From Hyphomicrobiales bacterium (GTDB lineage: Bacteria > Pseudomonadota > Alphaproteobacteria > Rhizobiales > Aestuariivirgaceae): 64,000 nucleotides of DNA. Positions 52-10,465 of this stretch are shown piece after piece. The translations under genes and the position numbers were made by a program. The stretch covers positions 17,406 through 81,405 of the forward strand of contig JANYLQ010000044.1 in the NCBI GenBank assembly GCA_025363755.1, in the 5' to 3' direction. How positions within the stretch are numbered: position 1 is the first letter of the stretch; every line of letters starts with the position of its first letter. A model generated the notes under the pieces. The model did not search any database. It saw nothing but the letters and a program-made list of their open reading frames with translations, and was not told the DNA's origin.

Positions 52-654
52 GTGGACCACGGCCTTTCAATATTACTCGTCGACGAAAACACGGATCGTG
101 CTGCTTTGATCGAGCGTGGCCTGCATGAGGCGGGTTATAACCGCGTTTCAATTATCCGGGAAACCAAGGGTGTTTTAAAAAAGATAGAAGATATTTCGCC
201 GGATGTAATTGTCATCGATTTGGGCAATTCAAGTCGTGATCTTTTGGAGCACATGTTTTTGGTGTCGCGCACCGTGCGCAAGCCGATCGCCATGTTTGTA
301 GATCAATCGGATGAACAGTCTATGTACCGGGCAATCGAGGCAGGTGTTTCTGCTTATGTCGTCGATGGACTTAAAAAAGAACGTATCAAACCCATTCTCG
401 ATCTGGCGATGATCCGGTTCAAGGCGTTTGAAGACATCCGCGATGAGCGGGATGCAGCCAAATCGGCACTTGATGACCAGAAGCTAATTGATCGTGCCAA
501 ACGCAACCTGATGAATGCAAAAGGCCTTTCGGAAGACGAAGCATATGAAAGCTTGCGCAAGGCTGCCATGGCGCAGAACAAACGCATGGCGCAAATCGCC
601 GAGGCTGTGATGACTGCACAAAGTTTGATGGAGCAATGTGATGATCGAACTTAA
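52..654 (+). CDS. nasT: ANTAR-domain response regulator, NasT-like transcription antiterminator
   Basis: N-terminal receiver-like fold (LSILLVDENTDRAALIERGL), C-terminal ANTAR-like helices (LIDRAKRNLMNAKGLSEDEAYESLRKAAMAQNKRMAQIAEAV); next to a NasS-like gene and a nitrate operon. GTG start; upstream context is cut by the window edge. Confidence 0.88.
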   Translation: MDHGLSILLVDENTDRAALIERGLHEAGYNRVSIIRETKGVLKKIEDISPDVIVIDLGNSSRDLLEHMFLVSRTVRKPIAMFVDQSDEQSMYRAIEAGVSAYVVDGLKKERIKPILDLAMIRFKAFEDIRDERDAAKSALDDQKLIDRAKRNLMNAKGLSEDEAYESLRKAAMAQNKRMAQIAEAVMTAQSLMEQCDDRT

Positions 655-1861
655 TGTCGGCTTTGTGCCTTTGCTTGATGCATCAATCCTCATCATGGCC
701 CATGAAAAAGGTTTCGCCGAAGAGCAAGGTCTTCAACTTAAACTTATGAAGGAAACATCCTGGGCCAATATCAGAGACCGCCTGTCAGTTGGCCAGTTTC
801 ATGTTGCCCATATGTTGGCCCCGCTGCCGATTGCACAGAACTTAGGATTATCGCCGCTTAAAACGCATTTGATTGCGCCTTTCGCGTTAGGGCTTGGTGG
901 AAATGCCATTACAGTTTCTCAGATGCTTTACGGGGCGATGGGTGAATCTATTTCGCATTCTTCCGACCCAGCAAAAGCTGGCGCTGCCTTGCGCGCGGTT
1001 GTTACGAGTCGCAAAGCACAAAACCTATCCAAACTTGTTTTTGCGGTTGTGCACAGCTTTTCGGTTCATGCTTATGAATTACGCTACTGGCTGGCGGCAA
1101 GCGGGATAGATCCCGAAGATGATGTTGACCTAACAATTGTCCCGCCCGCGATGATGGGAGACGCGTTGGCGACAGGTGCTATTGATGGGTTTTGTGTCGG
1201 TGAACCTTGGAATAGCAATGCTGTAGCGCAGGGCTTGGGCGAGGTGGTGACAACAAAAGCATCAATTTGGAGATCGAGCCCCGAGAAAGTTTTGGGATTA
1301 CGAAAAACATGGGCCGAAGATAATCGCGAAAAACTTGATACATTACTCGTTGCTCTTCACAACGCTGCGATGTGGTGCGGTTCGCCTCTTAACAGAGATG
1401 AAATGGCGCGCATTTTGGCAAAGCCCCAATACATTGGTGTGGGTGAAAAAATAGTTCGAAAAGGATTGGTTGGAAACATTCAAGGCGACCAGACACAAAG
1501 TGATTTTCTGATTTTTGCAGAGCGTGCAGCAAACTTCCCTTGGGTCAGCCACGCACTTTGGATCTATTCGCAAATGGTCCGGTGGAACCAATGTCAATAT
1601 AGTTCTGCAGCCGAAAAAATTGTCAGCCAAACCTATCGTCCCGATATTTACCGACAAGCGCTTGGCCCTTTCGGAGTGTCCCTCCCAGGTGGCAGCTCTA
1701 AGGTGGAAGGCGCGCTTACGGAAACAACGCGTGTGCCAGCTTCGGGAGGCCCTTTAAATTTGGGGCCGGACGGATTTTTTGATGGCATTGCCTTCGATCC
1801 AAGTGACATTAAATCTTATCTGACAGAATTAGGCAGAGATATTGCGTTGCACAATAGATAG
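638..1861 (+). CDS. nasS: NasS-like nitrate/nitrite sensor (CmpA/NrtA-family, no signal peptide)
   Basis: CmpA/NrtA motifs (GFVPLLDASILIMAHEKGFAEEQGL, FCVGEPWNSNAV) without an export signal; overlaps the nasT 3' end by 17 bp. Confidence 0.85.
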   Translation: MMIELNVGFVPLLDASILIMAHEKGFAEEQGLQLKLMKETSWANIRDRLSVGQFHVAHMLAPLPIAQNLGLSPLKTHLIAPFALGLGGNAITVSQMLYGAMGESISHSSDPAKAGAALRAVVTSRKAQNLSKLVFAVVHSFSVHAYELRYWLAASGIDPEDDVDLTIVPPAMMGDALATGAIDGFCVGEPWNSNAVAQGLGEVVTTKASIWRSSPEKVLGLRKTWAEDNREKLDTLLVALHNAAMWCGSPLNRDEMARILAKPQYIGVGEKIVRKGLVGNIQGDQTQSDFLIFAERAANFPWVSHALWIYSQMVRWNQCQYSSAAEKIVSQTYRPDIYRQALGPFGVSLPGGSSKVEGALTETTRVPASGGPLNLGPDGFFDGIAFDPSDIKSYLTELGRDIALHNR

Positions 1862-1958
1862 GCAATCAAATGCCTGTTCATGCGGCAGGTCAATTCGTGA
1901 AATTCGTCCGATAGATACTAAGTATCTGAAATTAAATATAAAAATAGTTTTTTGAAAT

Positions 1959-1974
1959 TGGCACAACTCATGCA
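1959..1974 (+). promoter_or_regulatory. Candidate sigma-54 (-24/-12) promoter
   Basis: TGGCAC-AACTC-ATGCA compared with consensus TGGCAC-N5-TTGCA: one mismatch, with correct GG-to-GC spacing; lies upstream of a nitrate-assimilation operon. Confidence 0.65.
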
Positions 1975-1987
1975 GTGATGCAAGCAA

Positions 1988-2068
1988 GTGCTCACAAGCA
2001 CATTCGGCAACGCCGCCGACAGGAAAGAGATCGCCCCCGACTCTCCGCCTGTCGGCGGCTTTTTTTTT
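1988..2068 (+). promoter_or_regulatory. Candidate ANTAR (NasT)-responsive antitermination leader
   Basis: Hairpin GTGC-TCACAA-GCAC (1988-2001) followed by hairpin TCGGC-AACGCC-GCCGA (2004-2019), whose hexaloop has A at position 1 and G at position 4; the second hairpin overlaps the 5' arm of the terminator. Confidence 0.65.
2012..2068 (+). terminator. Intrinsic terminator in the nrtA leader (attenuator)
   Basis: Perfect 12-bp stem GCCGCCGACAGG (2012-2023) / CCTGTCGGCGGC (2048-2059) followed by nine T (2060-2068), then AAGGAG and ATG at 2081. Confidence 0.88.
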
Positions 2069-2080
2069 AAGGAGAATGAG

Positions 2081-3361
2081 ATGTTTCAAATCAATTCCAC
2101 GCGCCGCGCCTTTCTGAAGAAATCAGCAGCTACTGCAGCAATTTTAACCGCGGCCCGCGCTCTATTGCCATCGGGTGCAATGGCTGCAAGTGGCCCCGAG
2201 ATTGACGTGGCAAAGCTCGGCTTCATTGCGCTGACAGATTCTTCTCCTTTGATTATTGCAAAAGAGAAGGGCCTCTTTGCTAAATATGGCGTTGGCAATG
2301 TCGAGGTTTTGAAGCAAGCTTCATGGGGTGCCACGCGCGATAATTTGGTTCTCGGTTCTGCGGGCAGCGGCATAGACGGCGCACATATTCTAACCCCGAT
2401 GCCATACCTGATGACGCTGGGCACAATCACGCAGAACAAACCTGTGCCGATGAAAATTTTGGCGCGGCTTAATCTTGATGGCCAAGGCATTTCAGTTTCC
2501 AAAGAATATGCAGATTTGAAAGTAGGGCTCGATGCATCGCTGCTCAGAGAAGCTTTCGCCAAGAAAAAAGCCGCGGGTGCGGCTGCTAAAATCGCTGTGA
2601 CGTTCCCAGGTGGAACACATGATTTGTGGATGAGGTATTGGCTCGCAGCGGGCGGCATTGATCCTAACAAGGATGTTGAAACCATCATCGTTCCACCGCC
2701 GCAGATGGTGGCCAATATGAAAGTCGGAACGGTTGATGCATTCTGTGTGGGTGAGCCATGGAATGCCCAACTTGTAAGCCAAGGACTTGGATATTCCGCT
2801 GTCACAACCGGTGAACTCTGGTCGAAGCACCCTGAAAAGTCTTTGGCATTGCGCGCTGATTTCACGGATAAGAATCCAAAGACCACGGAGGCCATATTGA
2901 TGGCAGTGATGGAAGCCCAGCAGTGGTGCGACGCTGATGCCAATAAGGATGAGCTGGCCAAAATCGTTTCTAAACGCGAATGGTTCAACATCAAGCCAGA
3001 AGATATTGTTGGTCGCCTGAAGGGTGAGTTTGATTATGGCAATGGCAAAGTGGTTCAAGCTAGCCCGCATGCCATGAAGTTCTGGCGTGATGCTGCTTCA
3101 TTTCCGTTTAAGAGTCATGATGCTTGGTTCCTTGCGGAAAATATGCGCTGGGGCAAGGTGAAGGGGGACACAGATATTGCAGCACTGATTGCAAATGTGA
3201 ATGGTGCTGACACTTGGCGGGCAGCTGCCAAGGCGATGAGCATCGCCGATGCTCCAGCTTCAGACTCGCGCGGTGTTGAAACCTTCTTTGACGGCAAAAC
3301 GTTCGATCCTGCAAACCCAAAGGCCTATCTCGACAGCCTTTCCATCAAAGCGATGGTTTGA
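2081..3361 (+). CDS. nrtA: Nitrate ABC transporter substrate-binding protein, NrtA family
   Basis: Twin-arginine-like signal STRRAFLKKSAATAAILTAARALLPSGAMA; CmpA/NrtA motifs (FCVGEPWNAQLVSQGLGY). ATG at 2081 preceded by AAGGAG; the track start at 1988 lies inside the leader. Confidence 0.9.
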   Translation: MFQINSTRRAFLKKSAATAAILTAARALLPSGAMAASGPEIDVAKLGFIALTDSSPLIIAKEKGLFAKYGVGNVEVLKQASWGATRDNLVLGSAGSGIDGAHILTPMPYLMTLGTITQNKPVPMKILARLNLDGQGISVSKEYADLKVGLDASLLREAFAKKKAAGAAAKIAVTFPGGTHDLWMRYWLAAGGIDPNKDVETIIVPPPQMVANMKVGTVDAFCVGEPWNAQLVSQGLGYSAVTTGELWSKHPEKSLALRADFTDKNPKTTEAILMAVMEAQQWCDADANKDELAKIVSKREWFNIKPEDIVGRLKGEFDYGNGKVVQASPHAMKFWRDAASFPFKSHDAWFLAENMRWGKVKGDTDIAALIANVNGADTWRAAAKAMSIADAPASDSRGVETFFDGKTFDPANPKAYLDSLSIKAMV

Positions 3362-3368
3362 GCTATTG

Positions 3369-4277
3369 ATGAGTGAAGCTGCGTTGAAACTTGAAACAGA
3401 ACTGGCCGAGGCATTGCCTCTGCCGGTTCGTCCTCTATCAAATGTCGTGGTGCTGCCAACCAAGCACGCTAAACCCAGAATGATATTCATGCCTGACTTT
3501 AAAAAAATTGGTGCGGCGTTGTTGCCACCACTCTTTGTTATGCTGTTGGCTTTGTTGTTGTGGCAAATTTTTGCTTCATCTCCCACCTCAGGTTTGCCGC
3601 CGCCGACAACGGTGATTGCAGAGAGCAGCGACCTCATTCTGCATCCGTTTTTTGATCATGGCGGCACAGACAAAGGCCTAGGCCTTCATGTTTTTGCATC
3701 GCTCAAGCGCGTAGCTTTGGGCTATACGTTGGCGGCCATTGTTGGCATTGCCTTGGGAACTCTGGTTGGCGCTTCACAATTGTTTATGCGCGGACTTGAC
3801 CCGTTGTTTCAAATCTTGCGCACTGTGCCACCGCTGGCGTGGCTTCCCATTTCATTGGCGGCGTTCAAGGACGGTCAACCTTCGGCAATCTTTGTGATTT
3901 TCATAACGGCGATTTGGCCGATCATTATTAATACTGCCACAGGCATCCGCAATATTCCCGATGACTATAAAAATGTGGCCCGAGTTATTCAACTCAACCC
4001 CCTTCAATATTTTTCCAAGATTATGGTCCCTGCTGCTGCGCCTTATATTTTCACAGGCCTGCGTATTGGTATTGGACTTTCCTGGCTGGCTATTGTGGCG
4101 GCAGAAATGTTGATCGGTGGAACTGGCATTGGATTTTTCATTTGGGACGCTTGGAATTCATCGCACATTAGCGACATCATTGTGGCCCTGTTTTATGTGG
4201 GGATCGTTGGTTTCGTGCTTGATCGGTTGGTCAGTTATGTGGGCTCGCTTGTCACCCACGGCATGACGGTGAATTGA
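3369..4277 (+). CDS. nrtB: Nitrate ABC transporter permease, NrtB family
   Basis: Binding-protein-dependent permease fold (LRTVPPLAWLPISLAAFKDGQPSAIFVIFITAIWPIIINTATGIRNIP). The in-frame ATG at 3369 is preferred over the track start at 3249, which overlaps nrtA. Confidence 0.9.
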   Translation: MSEAALKLETELAEALPLPVRPLSNVVVLPTKHAKPRMIFMPDFKKIGAALLPPLFVMLLALLLWQIFASSPTSGLPPPTTVIAESSDLILHPFFDHGGTDKGLGLHVFASLKRVALGYTLAAIVGIALGTLVGASQLFMRGLDPLFQILRTVPPLAWLPISLAAFKDGQPSAIFVIFITAIWPIIINTATGIRNIPDDYKNVARVIQLNPLQYFSKIMVPAAAPYIFTGLRIGIGLSWLAIVAAEMLIGGTGIGFFIWDAWNSSHISDIIVALFYVGIVGFVLDRLVSYVGSLVTHGMTVN

Positions 4278-4283
4278 GTATAT

Positions 4284-5081
4284 ATGATGCACAAACCTTA
4301 TCTCTCGCTATCGCATGTGGGCAAAAGTTTTCAGCGTGGCACTAATATCACCGAAGTACTGCGTGACATTTCTTTGACTGTCGAACGCGGCGAATATGTT
4401 TCGCTGATTGGCCATTCAGGTTGCGGCAAATCCACTTTGCTCAATCTGATTGCAGGCCTCACACCCGTCTCAAGCGGGACAGTTCTGTTGGAAGACAAAC
4501 ACGTCAATGCCCCGGGACCTGATCGTGCTGTGGTGTTTCAAAATCACTCGCTGCTGCCGTGGCTGAGTGTTTATGACAATATCAGGCTCGCTGTAGATAA
4601 AGTCTGGGCCAAGGAATCTGCAAGCCAACGCAAGGCTCGCATTATGGAAAAGCTTGATCTCGTACAAATGGCACATGCCAAAGACAAGCGTCCAAGTGAA
4701 ATTTCTGGGGGGATGAAACAGCGCGTAGGTATTGCGCGTGCGCTTGCTATGGAACCGAAGGTGTTGCTGCTCGACGAGCCCTTTGGCGCGCTTGATGCTT
4801 TGACGCGCGCCCATTTGCAAGACCAGGTGATGCAGATTCATCAGACGTTGAAGAACACGGTGGTGATGATCACGCACGATGTGGATGAGGCCGTGTTGCT
4901 TTCTGATCGTATTGTGATGCTGACCAATGGGCCATCAGCCACAATTGGGGAAATCGTGAATGTGAACCTGTCTTATCCCCGCAAGCGCATCGAACTGGTT
5001 TCGCAGCCAGAATATATCCGCTGCCGCGAGGCAGTTCTCAAATTCTTATACGAACGTCATAAATTTGTGGAGGCCGCATAA
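4284..5081 (+). CDS. nrtC: Nitrate ABC transporter ATP-binding protein
   Basis: Walker A GHSGCGKST, signature SGGMKQRVGIARAL, Walker B VLLLDEPFGALD; operon context. Could equally be named nrtD or nasD. Confidence 0.88.
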   Translation: MMHKPYLSLSHVGKSFQRGTNITEVLRDISLTVERGEYVSLIGHSGCGKSTLLNLIAGLTPVSSGTVLLEDKHVNAPGPDRAVVFQNHSLLPWLSVYDNIRLAVDKVWAKESASQRKARIMEKLDLVQMAHAKDKRPSEISGGMKQRVGIARALAMEPKVLLLDEPFGALDALTRAHLQDQVMQIHQTLKNTVVMITHDVDEAVLLSDRIVMLTNGPSATIGEIVNVNLSYPRKRIELVSQPEYIRCREAVLKFLYERHKFVEAA

Positions 5082-7528
5082 TGGCATCTAAACTGGTCAT
5101 TATCGGGAATGGCATGGCGCCGGGGCGCATGTTGGAGCATTTGTTCGAACTTGCGCCAAACAGCCACGACGTTACGATTTTCAACGCGGAGCCACGTGTC
5201 AATTATAACCGGCTCATGTTGTCGCCCGTGCTTTCTGGTGAGAAGACTTATGAGGACATCATCACGCATGGCGATGATTGGTATGCGCAAAATTCAGTCA
5301 CGCTGCATAAGGGCAAGAAGATTGCCAAAATTGATCGTGCTGCAAAAACAGTCACGGCGGAAGATGGAACTGAGGCTGCCTATGATAAGCTCGTTATCGC
5401 TACAGGCTCATCGCCGTTCATCATCCCAATTCCCGGCAAGGATTTGCCCGGTGTGGTGACCTACCGTGATCTCGATGATGTTGAAAAAATGCTGGCCGCT
5501 GCGAAACATGGCGGCAGCGCTGTAGTGATTGGTGGCGGTTTGCTTGGCCTTGAGGCTGCTGCTGGTTTGCACGCGCGCGGTATGGATGTAACTATTTTGC
5601 ATTTGATGCCAACATTGATGGAGCGTCAGCTTGATCCGGCGGCGGCGCATTTATTGCAACAGGCGATTGAAAAGCGCGGCATGAAGGTGATGCTTAAAGC
5701 CAATACTCATGCGATAGTCGGCGACGGAAAAGTTGAAGGTGTTCGGCTTGATGATGGCACTCTATTGCCTGCATCATTGGTGGTGATGGTTGTTGGTATT
5801 CGGCCTGCATCAGCCCTTGCAAAAGACGCTGGCATTGAAGTGAATCGCGGTATTCTTGCCAATGATCAGTTGATCACGTCTGACCCTGATGTGTTTGCTC
5901 TTGGAGAATGCGTCGAACATCGCACGGGCATCTATGGCCTTGTTGCACCCCTTTACGAAATGGCGCGAACGATTGCTGAAGTTTTAGCAGGGCAGGTGGC
6001 CGCTTACACCGGCTCTGTTATGTCAACCAAGCTCAAAGTGACAGGCATTGACCTTTATTCTGGTGGTGATTTTGCCGAGGCCCAAGACCGCGAAGAAATC
6101 GTGCTGCGTGATGCGTCGCGCGGTGTCTACAAAAGGCTGGTGATCAAAGACAACAAGATCATCGGCATTGTGATGTATGGCGATACGAGTGACGGGCCAT
6201 GGTTTTTTGATAAATTAAAGAAGGGTGAGGATATTTCCGAGCAGCGTGAAATGCTGATCTTTGGCCAAGCCTATGCAGGAGGGACCCCCCTGGACCCTAC
6301 GGCGGCCGTTGCAGCCTTACCGCCTGACGCAGAAATCTGCGGCTGCAACGGCATTTGCAAAAGCAAAATCACCGACGCGATTGCCGCGAAAAAATTAACA
6401 TCAATTGACGAAGTGCGTGCACACACCAAAGCTTCGGCTTCATGCGGTTCGTGCACGGGCCTTGTCGAAAAGCTGCTCGTCATTTCTTTAGGCGATGGTT
6501 ACAAACCCAACGCAATTCTACCGATGTGCCCCTGCACAGATCTGGGGCATGGTGAAGTACGGCGTTTGATCGTGGCGGAAGGCTTCAAAAACATTCAGGA
6601 GCTGATGCAGCAACTCGAATGGAAAACCAGTTGCGGCTGTGCCAAATGTCGACCGGCGCTCAACTATTACATGGTCTCCAATTGGCCTGGTGAATATGTC
6701 GATGATAATCAGTCGCGCTTCATCAACGAGCGCGTGCACGCCAACATTCAAAAGGACGGCACTTTCTCCGTCGTGCCGCGGATGTGGGGCGGCATGACAT
6801 CGGCCAAAGAGCTTCGCGCCATCGCTGATGTGGCAGATAAATTTGCAATCCCCGCCGTTAAAGTGACCGGCGGACAACGCATCGATTTGCTCGGCGTGAA
6901 GAAAGAAGATTTGCCGGCGGTCTGGTCTGATCTCAATGCGGCGGGCATGGTTTCGGGTGCGGCTTATGCAAAAGGTTTGCGCACTGTCAAAACTTGTGTG
7001 GGCACTGATTGGTGCAGATTTGGAACGCAAGATTCAACGGGCCTTGGCATTAAGCTTGAAAAATTTATGTGGGGATCTTGGACACCTGCAAAATTGAAAA
7101 TGGCGGTATCTGGTTGTCCGCGAAATTGTGCTGAAGCCACATGCAAAGACATCGGCGTCATCTGTGTTGACTCTGGCTATGACATTCATTTTGCTGGTGC
7201 CGCCGGCCTCGATATCAAGGGCACGCAAGTTCTCACACACGTCGACACTGAGGAAGAGGCGCTGGAAATGATTGTGGCGCTCACCCAGCTTTACCGTGAG
7301 CAGGGCTATTATCTTGAGCGCATTTACAAATGGGCGGCGCGTGTGGGGATCGATAGCGTGCGGCAAAATATTGTGGACGATGCAACCAAGCGCAAAGCCT
7401 ATTTCGACAAATTCGCATTCAGCCAAAAATTTGCACAGATTGATCCGTGGCGGTTGCGCGCTTCCGGCCATGAAGCCCACGAGTTTATGCCCATGCGGGC
7501 TTTCCCAAAACGTATCGCAGCGGAGTGA
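5081..7528 (+). CDS. nirB: Assimilatory NAD(P)H nitrite reductase large subunit
   Basis: FAD/NAD oxidoreductase N-terminus, BFD-like [2Fe-2S] Cys motifs (CGCNGICKS, CGSCTG), siroheme/4Fe-4S motif (CPRNCAEATCKDIG). Confidence 0.93.
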   Translation: MASKLVIIGNGMAPGRMLEHLFELAPNSHDVTIFNAEPRVNYNRLMLSPVLSGEKTYEDIITHGDDWYAQNSVTLHKGKKIAKIDRAAKTVTAEDGTEAAYDKLVIATGSSPFIIPIPGKDLPGVVTYRDLDDVEKMLAAAKHGGSAVVIGGGLLGLEAAAGLHARGMDVTILHLMPTLMERQLDPAAAHLLQQAIEKRGMKVMLKANTHAIVGDGKVEGVRLDDGTLLPASLVVMVVGIRPASALAKDAGIEVNRGILANDQLITSDPDVFALGECVEHRTGIYGLVAPLYEMARTIAEVLAGQVAAYTGSVMSTKLKVTGIDLYSGGDFAEAQDREEIVLRDASRGVYKRLVIKDNKIIGIVMYGDTSDGPWFFDKLKKGEDISEQREMLIFGQAYAGGTPLDPTAAVAALPPDAEICGCNGICKSKITDAIAAKKLTSIDEVRAHTKASASCGSCTGLVEKLLVISLGDGYKPNAILPMCPCTDLGHGEVRRLIVAEGFKNIQELMQQLEWKTSCGCAKCRPALNYYMVSNWPGEYVDDNQSRFINERVHANIQKDGTFSVVPRMWGGMTSAKELRAIADVADKFAIPAVKVTGGQRIDLLGVKKEDLPAVWSDLNAAGMVSGAAYAKGLRTVKTCVGTDWCRFGTQDSTGLGIKLEKFMWGSWTPAKLKMAVSGCPRNCAEATCKDIGVICVDSGYDIHFAGAAGLDIKGTQVLTHVDTEEEALEMIVALTQLYREQGYYLERIYKWAARVGIDSVRQNIVDDATKRKAYFDKFAFSQKFAQIDPWRLRASGHEAHEFMPMRAFPKRIAAE

Positions 7529-7529
7529 G

Positions 7530-7868
7530 ATGATGAATCCGGATTGGATCGATATTGGCTTGGTGCGCGATGTGCCGTTTCGTGGTTCGCGCATTGTGAG
7601 CACGGGCAATGGAGACATTGCAATTTTCAAAGCCTTTGATGGCAAAGTTTTTGCGCTGTGGGACAAGTGCCCTCATAAGGGTGGGCCGCTCAGCCAGGGC
7701 ATTGTGAATGGTCACTCAGTCACTTGCCCGCTTCATAATTGGGTGGTTGCATTGGACACGGGCGACGTGAAAGGCCCAGACAAGGGCTGTGCGCGAAAAG
7801 TTGAATTGATGATCGACGACGGACGCATTTATATGGCCGCCGCCACGCTCAAAAGAGATGCTGCATGA
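7530..7868 (+). CDS. nirD: Nitrite reductase small subunit (Rieske-type)
   Basis: Rieske-like motif CPHKGGPLSQG...CPLHNWVV; ATGATG at 7530/7533 directly after the nirB stop. Confidence 0.9.
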   Translation: MMNPDWIDIGLVRDVPFRGSRIVSTGNGDIAIFKAFDGKVFALWDKCPHKGGPLSQGIVNGHSVTCPLHNWVVALDTGDVKGPDKGCARKVELMIDDGRIYMAAATLKRDAA

Positions 7869-10465
7869 CAACGACTAAAACCACATGCCCCTATTGTGGT
7901 GTGGGTTGCGGCGTGCTGGCGACAAAGATTGGGGATGGAAAGGTTTCGGTTAAAGGAGATCCAGAACACCCAGCGAATTTTGGCAAGCTCTGTTCCAAAG
8001 GTTTAACACTGGCCGAGACGCTTGTGCCGCAGGGGCGTCTGACTTACCCAATGATTGCCAATGAACGTGTTTCGTGGGACGCGGCTATTGCACGTGTGGC
8101 GGAAAAATTTGCGACTACAATCCGGGATCATGGCCCAGACAGCGTGGCTTTCTATGTGTCGGGGCAATTGCTGACGGAAGACTATTACGTCGCCAACAAA
8201 CTGATGAAGGGGTTCATCGGCTCGGCCAATATCGATACCAATTCAAGACTATGTATGGCCTCAGCAGTGGCGGGCCATAAAAGGGCGTTTGGCGCAGATA
8301 TTGTGCCTTGCAATTATGAAGATTTGGAAGAGGCCGACTTGGTGGTGCTGGTAGGTTCCAATCTTGCTTGGTGTCACCCTATTCTGTTTCAACGCCTGCA
8401 AGCTGCGCGCGAAAAGCGTGGCACAAAACTTGTGGTGATTGATCCGCGCCGCACCGCCTCGGCCGAAGGTGCGGATTTATTTTTAGGGATTACGTCTGGC
8501 AGCGATGTTGCGCTTTTCAACGGCTTGCTCCGCCAGCTTTACTTACGCGGTGAATTTGATCCAGCATTTGTTTTTTCTCACACATCTGGCCTTAGCGAAG
8601 CGCTGTTGGCGTCGCGCGAATGGACGACTGAAGGCGTCGCGGCAGCAACCGGATTGAAACAGACGGATGTTGAGGCGTTTTATGCTTTGTTTGCAGCGCA
8701 TGAAAAAATCGTCACTGCCTTTTCCATGGGTGTCAATCAATCGGCATCAGGCACTGATAAAGTGAATGCCATTATAAATTGCCACCTGCTCACGGGGCGC
8801 ATTGGCAAGGCCGGAGCCGGTCCGTTTTCGATCACGGGTCAACCCAATGCCATGGGTGGCCGTGAAGTGGGCGGCATGGCCAATATGTTGGCTGCACATA
8901 TGGACATTGCCAATCCTGTTCACCGTGATGCCGTCCAGAAATTTTGGGCTTCACCACATATCCCAGAAAAAGAGGGTCTTAAAGCTGTCGATATGTTTCA
9001 GGCAGTGGGTGAAGACAAGATCAAAGCGCTTTGGATTATGGGCACAAATCCTGCTGTCAGCTTGCCAGATTCTGGTTCTATTGCAGCTGCATTGAAGCGC
9101 TGCGATTTCGTTGTTGTTTCCGATGTCATGGCGCAAACCGAAACAACGCAATATGCCCATGTACTTTTACCCGCTCAAGGCTGGGGCGAGAAGGATGGCA
9201 CAGTCACCAACTCAGAGCGTCGCATTTCACGGCAGCGCAGTTTTTTGGCACCCGAGGGTGAGGCACGCCCTGATTGGAAAATTATCTGTGATATTGCCGA
9301 GGCCATGGGATTTGACGGCTTTGGATACGAAGGCCCCGCAGAAATATTTGCAGAGCATGTGGGTCTTAGCGAAGTTCAAAATAACGGAACGCGGTTGCTT
9401 AATCTGGAGGACTGGAAAGGCCAAGATTTTGAAGCACTCATGCCTACTCAATGGGGTGGCAGGCGTCCGTTCGTTGATGGAATTTTTCAAACCCATGATG
9501 GTCGCGCACGCTTTGTGCCGACGCTTTTTAAGCCTGTGACGATTGATGAAGGCAAATACACGCTGAACACGGGGCGCATTCGTGATCAGTGGCACACCAT
9601 GACGCGCACTGGTCTGGTGCCGAAACTGTTTAGCCACCGTGCAGAGCCTTACATCGAAATATCACCTGCAGCGGCGACCAGCTTGGGTTTGCACCCTGCG
9701 GATTTGGCTGAGATTTCGGGCGAGCACGGAAAATCCATCGCCCGCATTTTGATCACCCAGACCGTCAGAGATGGAGATGTTTTCCAACCGATGCATTGGA
9801 CTTCTCAATTTGCATCGCAAGCTTTGGCCAATGGCAACACTTCACCAGCGGTTGATCCATTCAGTGGCCAGCCAGCGCTGAAATCATCGGCTGTCAGTAT
9901 CGCCAAAAAGGCAATCGCTTGGCATGGTTGTGGAATTGCGCTTGGCCCGCTGGAATTGCTCACATGCTATTGGGCCAAAGCGCCATTGCTGGAAGGATTT
10001 GCCTTTGAGTGCGCTGATGAAAAATTTCCAGCGGATTGGTTGGCATTTAGCGGGTCTTTGATGTCTTTGGAGGCAAGCGAAATCTCCACGGTATTAACAG
10101 GTGACCAAGCTTCCTTTCGCTGCGTTGCCCGAAAAAATGGAAAATTGATTTTTGCTTTCTTTGCGTCGGCCCAACCTGTTGAGGTAAGCCGCGCATGGCT
10201 GCACCAACAGCTTGGCAGTGACGTTCAATCGGTGCAGGTTCTGTCTGGCAGGCCAGCGGCAGGCGTGCTCGATCATGGCCCCATCATCTGTTCTTGCAAC
10301 GGCGTGGGGCGTAACTTGATCAAACGCGCGGTTTACGACACACACGGCGCAACACTAAGTGCGATTTGTGAAAAGACCAATGCAGGTATGGGCTGTGGTT
10401 CATGCAGGCCAGAGGTGCAAAGGATCATCACGGAAATCTCTGCTACGCGCATTGCAGCGGAATAG
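7865..10465 (+). CDS. nasA: Assimilatory nitrate reductase catalytic subunit with C-terminal BFD-like domain
   Basis: N-terminal 4Fe-4S motif CPYCGVGCGV, molybdopterin oxidoreductase motifs, C-terminal IICSCNGVGRNLIKRAV...CGSCRPEV; 4-bp ATGA overlap with nirD. Confidence 0.93.
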   Translation: MTTTKTTCPYCGVGCGVLATKIGDGKVSVKGDPEHPANFGKLCSKGLTLAETLVPQGRLTYPMIANERVSWDAAIARVAEKFATTIRDHGPDSVAFYVSGQLLTEDYYVANKLMKGFIGSANIDTNSRLCMASAVAGHKRAFGADIVPCNYEDLEEADLVVLVGSNLAWCHPILFQRLQAAREKRGTKLVVIDPRRTASAEGADLFLGITSGSDVALFNGLLRQLYLRGEFDPAFVFSHTSGLSEALLASREWTTEGVAAATGLKQTDVEAFYALFAAHEKIVTAFSMGVNQSASGTDKVNAIINCHLLTGRIGKAGAGPFSITGQPNAMGGREVGGMANMLAAHMDIANPVHRDAVQKFWASPHIPEKEGLKAVDMFQAVGEDKIKALWIMGTNPAVSLPDSGSIAAALKRCDFVVVSDVMAQTETTQYAHVLLPAQGWGEKDGTVTNSERRISRQRSFLAPEGEARPDWKIICDIAEAMGFDGFGYEGPAEIFAEHVGLSEVQNNGTRLLNLEDWKGQDFEALMPTQWGGRRPFVDGIFQTHDGRARFVPTLFKPVTIDEGKYTLNTGRIRDQWHTMTRTGLVPKLFSHRAEPYIEISPAAATSLGLHPADLAEISGEHGKSIARILITQTVRDGDVFQPMHWTSQFASQALANGNTSPAVDPFSGQPALKSSAVSIAKKAIAWHGCGIALGPLELLTCYWAKAPLLEGFAFECADEKFPADWLAFSGSLMSLEASEISTVLTGDQASFRCVARKNGKLIFAFFASAQPVEVSRAWLHQQLGSDVQSVQVLSGRPAAGVLDHGPIICSCNGVGRNLIKRAVYDTHGATLSAICEKTNAGMGCGSCRPEVQRIITEISATRIAAE

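What the first reader, a model, noticed from the sequence alone, without database searches (positions are those of the whole stretch)
2004..2068. Antiterminator hairpin with an ANTAR-type hexaloop overlaps an intrinsic terminator immediately upstream of nrtA
Directly visible: hairpin TCGGC-AACGCC-GCCGA (2004-2019) has a 6-nt loop with A at position 1 and G at position 4. Its loop and 3' arm overlap the 5' arm (2012-2023) of a perfect 12-bp terminator stem followed by nine T. The two structures cannot coexist. Established: ANTAR proteins such as NasR, NasT and EutV bind hexaloop hairpins with conserved A1 and G4 and prevent terminator formation. Inference: NasT, encoded about 1.4 kb upstream, binds here to derepress nrtABC-nirBD-nasA, with NasS as the sensor.
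Basis: partly seen in the sequence, partly recalled or inferred. Interest (0 to 1): 0.72.

Follow-up and report, generated by a model that had tools for sequence, protein, structure and literature searches.

The report
Nitrate-controlled NasT antiterminator leader before nrtA
A short RNA switch in front of a bacterial nitrate-uptake and nitrate-reduction operon folds either into a stop signal or into a hairpin that the regulator NasT is expected to hold open when nitrate is present; the mechanism is known, but this lineage lacks the usual first of the two recognition hairpins.

Summary
Comparison supports the interpretation. nasT (the genome's only ANTAR gene) and nasS lie directly upstream. 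A covariance model from 19 leaders outside this family has its best 64-kb hit here (20.8 bits; next 10.1). Among 76 distinct leaders, a hexaloop overlapping the terminator carries A1/G4 in 34, against at most 5 for any other combination. This is the known NasS-NasT antitermination switch, behind a predicted sigma-54 promoter (1958-1974).

The hairpin next to P2 (P1) carries A1 and G4 in 41 of 46 leaders outside this family. In the window it is GUGCU-CACA-AGCAC (or loop UCACAA), with neither base. None of eight family leaders has a canonical hairpin there (one has it further upstream), while P2 is intact in all. NasT of the window and its sister genome has Gln at the EutV Arg142 position (Arg in 115 of 118). 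Ordinary mechanism, variant target; binding and readthrough untested.

The parts
52..654 (+). nasT: REC + ANTAR antiterminator, 200 aa
   Evidence: Pfam ANTAR 59 bits and Response_reg 32 bits; only ANTAR match in the genome
638..1861 (+). nasS: nitrate/nitrite sensor, NrtA-like, overlaps nasT
   Evidence: Pfam NMT1_2; ORF; conserved nasT-nasS order in relatives
1848..1864 (+). NtrC-like dyad TGCACAATAGATAGGCA (tentative)
   Evidence: pattern TGC(A/C)-N9-GGCA; weak evidence, inference
1871..1887 (+). NtrC-like dyad TGCCTGTTCATGCGGCA (tentative)
   Evidence: kept in sister genome G003 as TGCCTGTTCATGTGGCA
1958..1974 (+). predicted sigma-54 promoter TTGGCACAACTCATGCA (GG 1960-1961, GC 1972-1973); predicted start about 1985
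   Evidence: same kind of site in all 8 family leaders whose upstream sequence is held and in 53 of 78 leaders against 15 of 1560 random stretches
1988..2001 (+). P1-position hairpin GUGCU-CACA-AGCAC (or GUGC-UCACAA-GCAC); lacks A1 and G4
   Evidence: not aligned to model P1
2004..2019 (+). P2 antiterminator hexaloop hairpin TCGGC-AACGCC-GCCGA
2012..2059 (+). intrinsic terminator stem-loop, 12-bp stem (2012-2023 with 2048-2059) with an inner hairpin
2060..2068 (+). nine-T tract of the terminator
2069..2074 (+). Shine-Dalgarno-like AAGGAG
2081..3361 (+). nrtA: nitrate-binding protein, first gene controlled
   Evidence: Pfam NMT1_2
3369..4277 (+). nrtB permease
   Evidence: TIGR01183 above cut-off
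4284..5081 (+). nrtC ATPase
   Evidence: TIGR01184 above cut-off
5081..7528 (+). nirB nitrite reductase large subunit
   Evidence: TIGR02374 above cut-off
7476..7868 (+). nirD-like Rieske subunit (frame; exact start not fixed)
   Evidence: Pfam Rieske
7865..10465 (+). nasA assimilatory nitrate reductase
   Evidence: NCBIfam NasC/NapA/Fdh-alpha family matches, below the equivalog cut-offs

Best explanation
This is a NasS-NasT transcription-antitermination leader. NtrC and sigma-54 RNA polymerase probably start a short leader at about 1985 under nitrogen limitation (inferred). Without nitrate, NasS holds NasT, the 12-bp hairpin at 2012-2059 forms and transcription stops in the T tract before nrtA. 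With nitrate or nitrite, NasT is released and binds the P2 hexaloop (2004-2019, A2009/G2012) as it emerges. P2 shares bases 2012-2019 with the terminator 5' arm, so the terminator cannot close and nrtABC-nirBD-nasA is read. Shown here: sequence anatomy, mutual exclusion by folding, conservation with compensatory change, gene neighbourhood, single ANTAR protein. Inferred: NasT binding, nitrate dependence, NtrC control. In this lineage the first recognition hairpin (P1) has lost both signature bases, so P2 must carry base-specific recognition alone or with a degenerate P1.
For: P2 and terminator as described. Model R1, from 19 leaders outside the family, gives 20.8 bits, E 0.006, here against 10.1 bits for the next of 64 kb and scores 12.7-28.2 bits at the pre-nrtA leaders of family members. 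Covariation of P1 and P2: 91.6% of cells paired, 8 pairs with double changes, 0/500 shuffles reaching the covariation score. A1/G4 in P2: 34 leaders against at most 5 for any other combination. Adjacent nasT-nasS, one ANTAR gene. Sigma-54 site in the leaders of relatives. NasT retains six of nine RNA-contact residues mapped from EutV, among them Met172, Arg168, Lys149 and Glu160. Literature: NasT binds the nasA leader in Paracoccus, and a leader hairpin mutation abolishes growth on nitrate (PMC3795266, PMC5424462).
Against: P1, needed for EutV antitermination in vivo (PMC3369931), is not canonical in the window. NasT here has Gln where EutV Arg142, which contacts G4, is expected. The rough E-value of the model hit (0.006) rests on P2. 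Stem and loop of P2 share bases with the terminator, so part of their conservation could come from the terminator. No expression or binding data.
Confidence: 0.88

Rival explanations
1. Standard dual-hexaloop leader: the 1988-2001 hairpin still works as P1, its UCACAA loop being recognised despite lacking A1 and G4, so nothing differs from the textbook switch.
For: The position next to P2 is kept and a hairpin is present in window and sister. Distance from the -12 element to the P2 end is exactly 46 nt in four genomes whose sequence between differs, which suggests a spacing constraint. Some leaders outside the family also lack A1 in P1 (3 of 46).
Against: U1-A6 can pair, giving a tetraloop, a loop size that EutV is thought to exclude (PMC8934654). 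Position 4 is G in 44 of 46 leaders outside the family but C here. In sister G003 the stem is shorter (3-4 bp with a G-U pair).
Confidence: 0.35
2. Plain intrinsic terminator that ends nasTS transcripts (insulator) with a constitutive fraction of readthrough; the hexaloop is a by-product of the terminator's 5' arm.
For: The terminator lies after nasS and is strong (-31.9 kcal/mol).
Against: A predicted sigma-54 promoter lies upstream of the terminator, so a pure nasTS terminator would block the operon's own promoter. A1/G4 conservation and P2 covariation are not expected. P2 5' arm bases 2004-2008 lie outside the terminator, yet the corresponding bases keep pairing through compensatory changes in relatives.
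Confidence: 0.07
3. NasT-independent attenuation (for example Rho, a small molecule or a leader peptide).
For: A GTG-started frame 1988-3361 runs through the leader in frame with nrtA.
Against: That frame has no room for a ribosome site at a predicted start of about 1985; Rfam finds no riboswitch; nasT adjacency and motif match.
Confidence: 0.03

Closest known systems
NasS-NasT / nasA leader of Paracoccus denitrificans (PMC3795266, PMC5424462)
   Same: nasT-nasS directly upstream of the target, intergenic leader with recognition hairpin and attenuating hairpin, NtrC involvement
   Different: There the target is nasABGHC and the reported NtrC site lies before nasT; here the target is nrtABC-nirBD-nasA with a predicted sigma-54 promoter in the nasS-nrtA gap
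NasT-controlled nosR, nirA and narK leaders of Bradyrhizobium diazoefficiens (PMC6759348)
   Same: NasT antitermination in an alphaproteobacterium
   Different: Other targets; the published hairpin figures were not available to align
EutV dual-hexaloop leaders of Enterococcus faecalis (PMC3369931, PMC8934654)
   Same: P2 hexaloop with A1/G4 overlapping the terminator 5' arm
   Different: EutV leaders have two A1/G4 hexaloops with a 5-12 nt linker; the window has one, and its NasT lacks the Arg142 equivalent
NasR / nasF leader of Klebsiella oxytoca (Chai and Stewart, as cited in PMC3369931)
   Same: nitrate-responsive ANTAR antitermination, A1/G4 hexaloop
   Different: NasR carries its own nitrate sensor domain; two A1/G4 hexaloops are reported there

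Membership tests
NasS-NasT antitermination leader | ANTAR protein NasT and sensor NasS encoded next to the target | tested here: met
NasS-NasT antitermination leader | Hexaloop hairpin (A1, G4) mutually exclusive with a terminator upstream of nitrate genes | tested here: met
NasS-NasT antitermination leader | Scores with a covariance model of other members | tested here: met
   20.8 bits against 10.1 for next best in 64 kb; carried by P2
NasS-NasT antitermination leader | NasT binding and nitrate-dependent readthrough | not testable with these tools
   needs EMSA and reporter assays
ANTAR dual-hexaloop motif (EutV type) | P2 hexaloop with A1 and G4 overlapping the terminator | tested here: met
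ANTAR dual-hexaloop motif (EutV type) | P1 hexaloop with A1 and G4, 5-12 nt upstream of P2 | tested here: not met
   UCACAA or tetraloop CACA, 2-nt linker; no other A1/G4 hairpin between the predicted start and P2
ANTAR dual-hexaloop motif (EutV type) | Conserved RNA-contact residues in the ANTAR domain | tested here: inconclusive
   Six of nine EutV contact residues are identical (K143, K149, E160, Y164, R168, M172); K147 is Arg, as in most NasT; Arg142 is Gln and Asn173 is Ala
Rfam-catalogued riboswitch or leader | Match to an Rfam family | tested here: not met
   only a chance CRISPR-repeat match, E 4.6, elsewhere

The most novel reading that the evidence does not exclude
In this lineage NasT antiterminates through a single canonical hexaloop. 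The recruitment hairpin P1 has been lost or replaced by an ordinary tetraloop hairpin at the very 5' end of a shortened sigma-54 leader, and NasT has changed at the Arg142 (G4-contact) position to match. That would be a natural single-hexaloop ANTAR switch, at odds with the two-hexaloop requirement shown for EutV.
Probability: 0.35. Interest if true: 0.6.

Novelty: new variant of a known kind. Interest (0 to 1): 0.4.

Why it matters
The basic switch is known, so the window adds a member of a recognised regulatory class. The variation bears on an open question in ANTAR biology: why two hexaloops are needed when a dimer contacts only one. If the window's leader works, it is a natural experiment without the first hexaloop. 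Other relatives give the contrary case, with the first hexaloop kept but separated from P2 by an extra hairpin.

Tried and rejected
Rfam scan: no leader family. A canonical P1 further upstream in the window (TGC-AGTGAT-GCA, 1971-1982, A1/G4): rejected as the working P1 because it overlaps the predicted -12 element, lies before the predicted start, and is not kept in sister G003 (TGC-AGAGTT-AAT). A second NasT target in the genome (C28:19380-19417, 19.4 bits): rejected, since it looks like coding sequence and no terminator follows it. The first automatic P1/P2 caller chose most-stable loops and mislabelled some hexaloops as tetraloops; replaced by the tests. The Azotobacter NasT paper (10.1128/AEM.01720-12) is not held.

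Full report
WHAT WAS CHECKED. The described bases are exactly where stated. TCGGC 2004-2008, AACGCC 2009-2014 and GCCGA 2015-2019 form a 5-bp hairpin with a hexaloop (A first, G fourth). GCCGCCGACAGG 2012-2023 pairs without mismatch with CCTGTCGGCGGC 2048-2059, and nine T follow. nrtA begins at ATG 2081 after AAGGAG. Folding of 1960-2060 is much more stable than shuffled sequence (z -4.2). Folding growing lengths from 1985 shows P2 present from 2019 to about 2050, opened from its outer pairs at 2054, and replaced by the terminator at 2059 (P2 -7.1 kcal/mol, terminator -31.9). This is the order that a protein-stabilised antiterminator needs.

GENE CONTEXT. nasT (52-654) has a receiver and an ANTAR domain, and nasS (638-1861) is an NrtA-like sensor. 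The genome has one ANTAR protein. Downstream lie nrtA, nrtB, nrtC, nirB, a Rieske nirD-like frame and nasA. In many relatives the element again lies just after nasS.

COMPARATIVE TEST. I built a covariance model (R1) from 19 leaders found at nasT loci of other bacteria, nearly all alphaproteobacteria and none from the window's family. Its two hairpins are supported by double compensatory changes in 8 of 12 pairs (27 cells against a shuffled mean of 7.9; covariation score 0.438 against 0.222; 0/500 shuffles). The shuffle control ignores relatedness; the slide control, which keeps it, gives at most 2 such pairs. Searched without filters over 64 kb, the model's best hit is 1964-2019 (20.8 bits, rough E 0.006); the next is 10.1 bits. 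The alignment shows that the score comes from P2: model P1 is not matched. In 76 distinct leaders, a hexaloop hairpin overlapping the terminator had A1/G4 in 34, against 5 for the next best of the 15 other base combinations.

PROMOTER. TTGGCAC-AACTCA-TGCA (1958-1974) has the GG-N10-GC layout of sigma-54 promoters. One-mismatch matches to the 17-base pattern are not rare in the window by themselves (19 found, 10 expected). The case rests on conservation: such a site recurs in all 8 family leaders whose upstream sequence is held and in 53 of 78 leaders against 15 of 1560 random 150-base stretches of the same loci. The predicted start is about 1985. Two dyads of the TGC(A/C)-N9-GGCA type lie at 1848-1864 and 1871-1887; calling them NtrC sites is an inference. 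A sigma-54 survey lists nitrate ABC transporter genes among sigma-54-controlled families (PMC12316311).

ANTAR proteins of the EutV type require two hexaloops, both with A1 and G4 (PMC3369931). A structure shows that a dimer contacts one hexaloop at a time through G4, and its authors propose that P1 recruits the protein and P2 antiterminates (PMC8934654). In leaders outside the window's family, the hexaloop hairpin nearest upstream of P2, chosen without regard to its loop bases, has A at position 1 in 43 of 46 and G at position 4 in 44 of 46; 41 of 46 have both. In the family the loops next to P2 are: window UCACAA, sister G003 UAACAA, G022 CUCGAU, G021 CAUGAU, G277 GGUGAC, G436 GCUGAC, G005 AAAAUC, and G008 a 7-bp stem with a 5-base loop. 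None of these eight has both bases, while P2 keeps A1 and G4 in all eight. In the window, U1 and A6 can pair, so the hairpin is best drawn as GUGCU-CACA-AGCAC. The family is one clade, so these are not eight independent losses.

TWO FURTHER COMPARISONS. First, in Rhizobium, Agrobacterium, Phyllobacterium and related leaders (22 of 23 examined) P2 is GAC-ANNGAC-GUC and a canonical A1/G4 P1 lies 28-39 nt upstream, with room for, and usually a predicted, further hairpin in between. G005, in the window's family, has this same arrangement (AACC-AGAGUU-GGUU, then GGCUC-AAAAUC-GGGCC, then P2), and its leader is about 26 nt longer than the window's (72 against 46 nt from the -12 element to the P2 end). 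A simple reading is that the window's 1988-2001 hairpin corresponds to the spacer hairpin and that the true P1 was lost when the leader shortened (inference). Second, mapping EutV's RNA-contact residues through an alignment with the solved structure shows that the Arg142 position, which contacts G4 and whose alanine change costs about 8-fold in affinity (PMC8934654), is Arg in 115 of 118 NasT proteins. It is Gln only in the window and its sister G003, the two leaders whose hexaloop-sized hairpin next to P2 lacks both A1 and G4 (one further protein, L081, has His with a canonical P1). This is a single evolutionary event, so the link is suggestive only.

VERDICT. The mechanism (NasT antitermination of the nitrate operon, relieved by nitrate through NasS) is well supported by comparison, not by experiment, and is of a known kind. 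The window's leader fails one defining feature of the dual-hexaloop motif, so I file it as a variant. Whether it works with one hexaloop, or with a degenerate P1, is open and directly testable.

Noticed in passing
L043, L048, L050, L051, L053, L059, L061, L064, L066, L070, L071, L074, L077-L079, L085, L091, L092, L098, L101, L105, L111 (leader after nasS): Rhizobium/Agrobacterium/Phyllobacterium-type leaders have a canonical A1/G4 P1 (typically GGUC-AACGGC-GAUC) separated from P2 by 28-39 nt that often hold another hairpin, longer than the 5-12 nt linkers known for EutV.
   Followed up: partly
L016, L063, L083 (leader after nasS): Three tandem A1/G4 hexaloop hairpins: an extra one about 31 nt upstream of P2 in addition to P1 and P2.
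   Followed up: no
window NasT residue 143 (within 52-654) and L002: Gln at the EutV Arg142 (G4-contact) position, seen only in the window and its sister genome, and Ala at the Asn173 position.
   Followed up: yes
genus and family of the window (37 and 69 genomes): NasT is present in only 6 of 37 genomes of the genus and 8 of 69 of the family, so the nas cluster is patchy.
   Followed up: no
window 7865-10465: NasA has a C-terminal stretch (residues 799-859) matching an iron-sulphur region of NirB.
   Followed up: no
window 1914-1928: Perfect short palindrome AGATAC-TAA-GTATCT between nasS and the promoter; not kept intact in sister G003.
   Followed up: no
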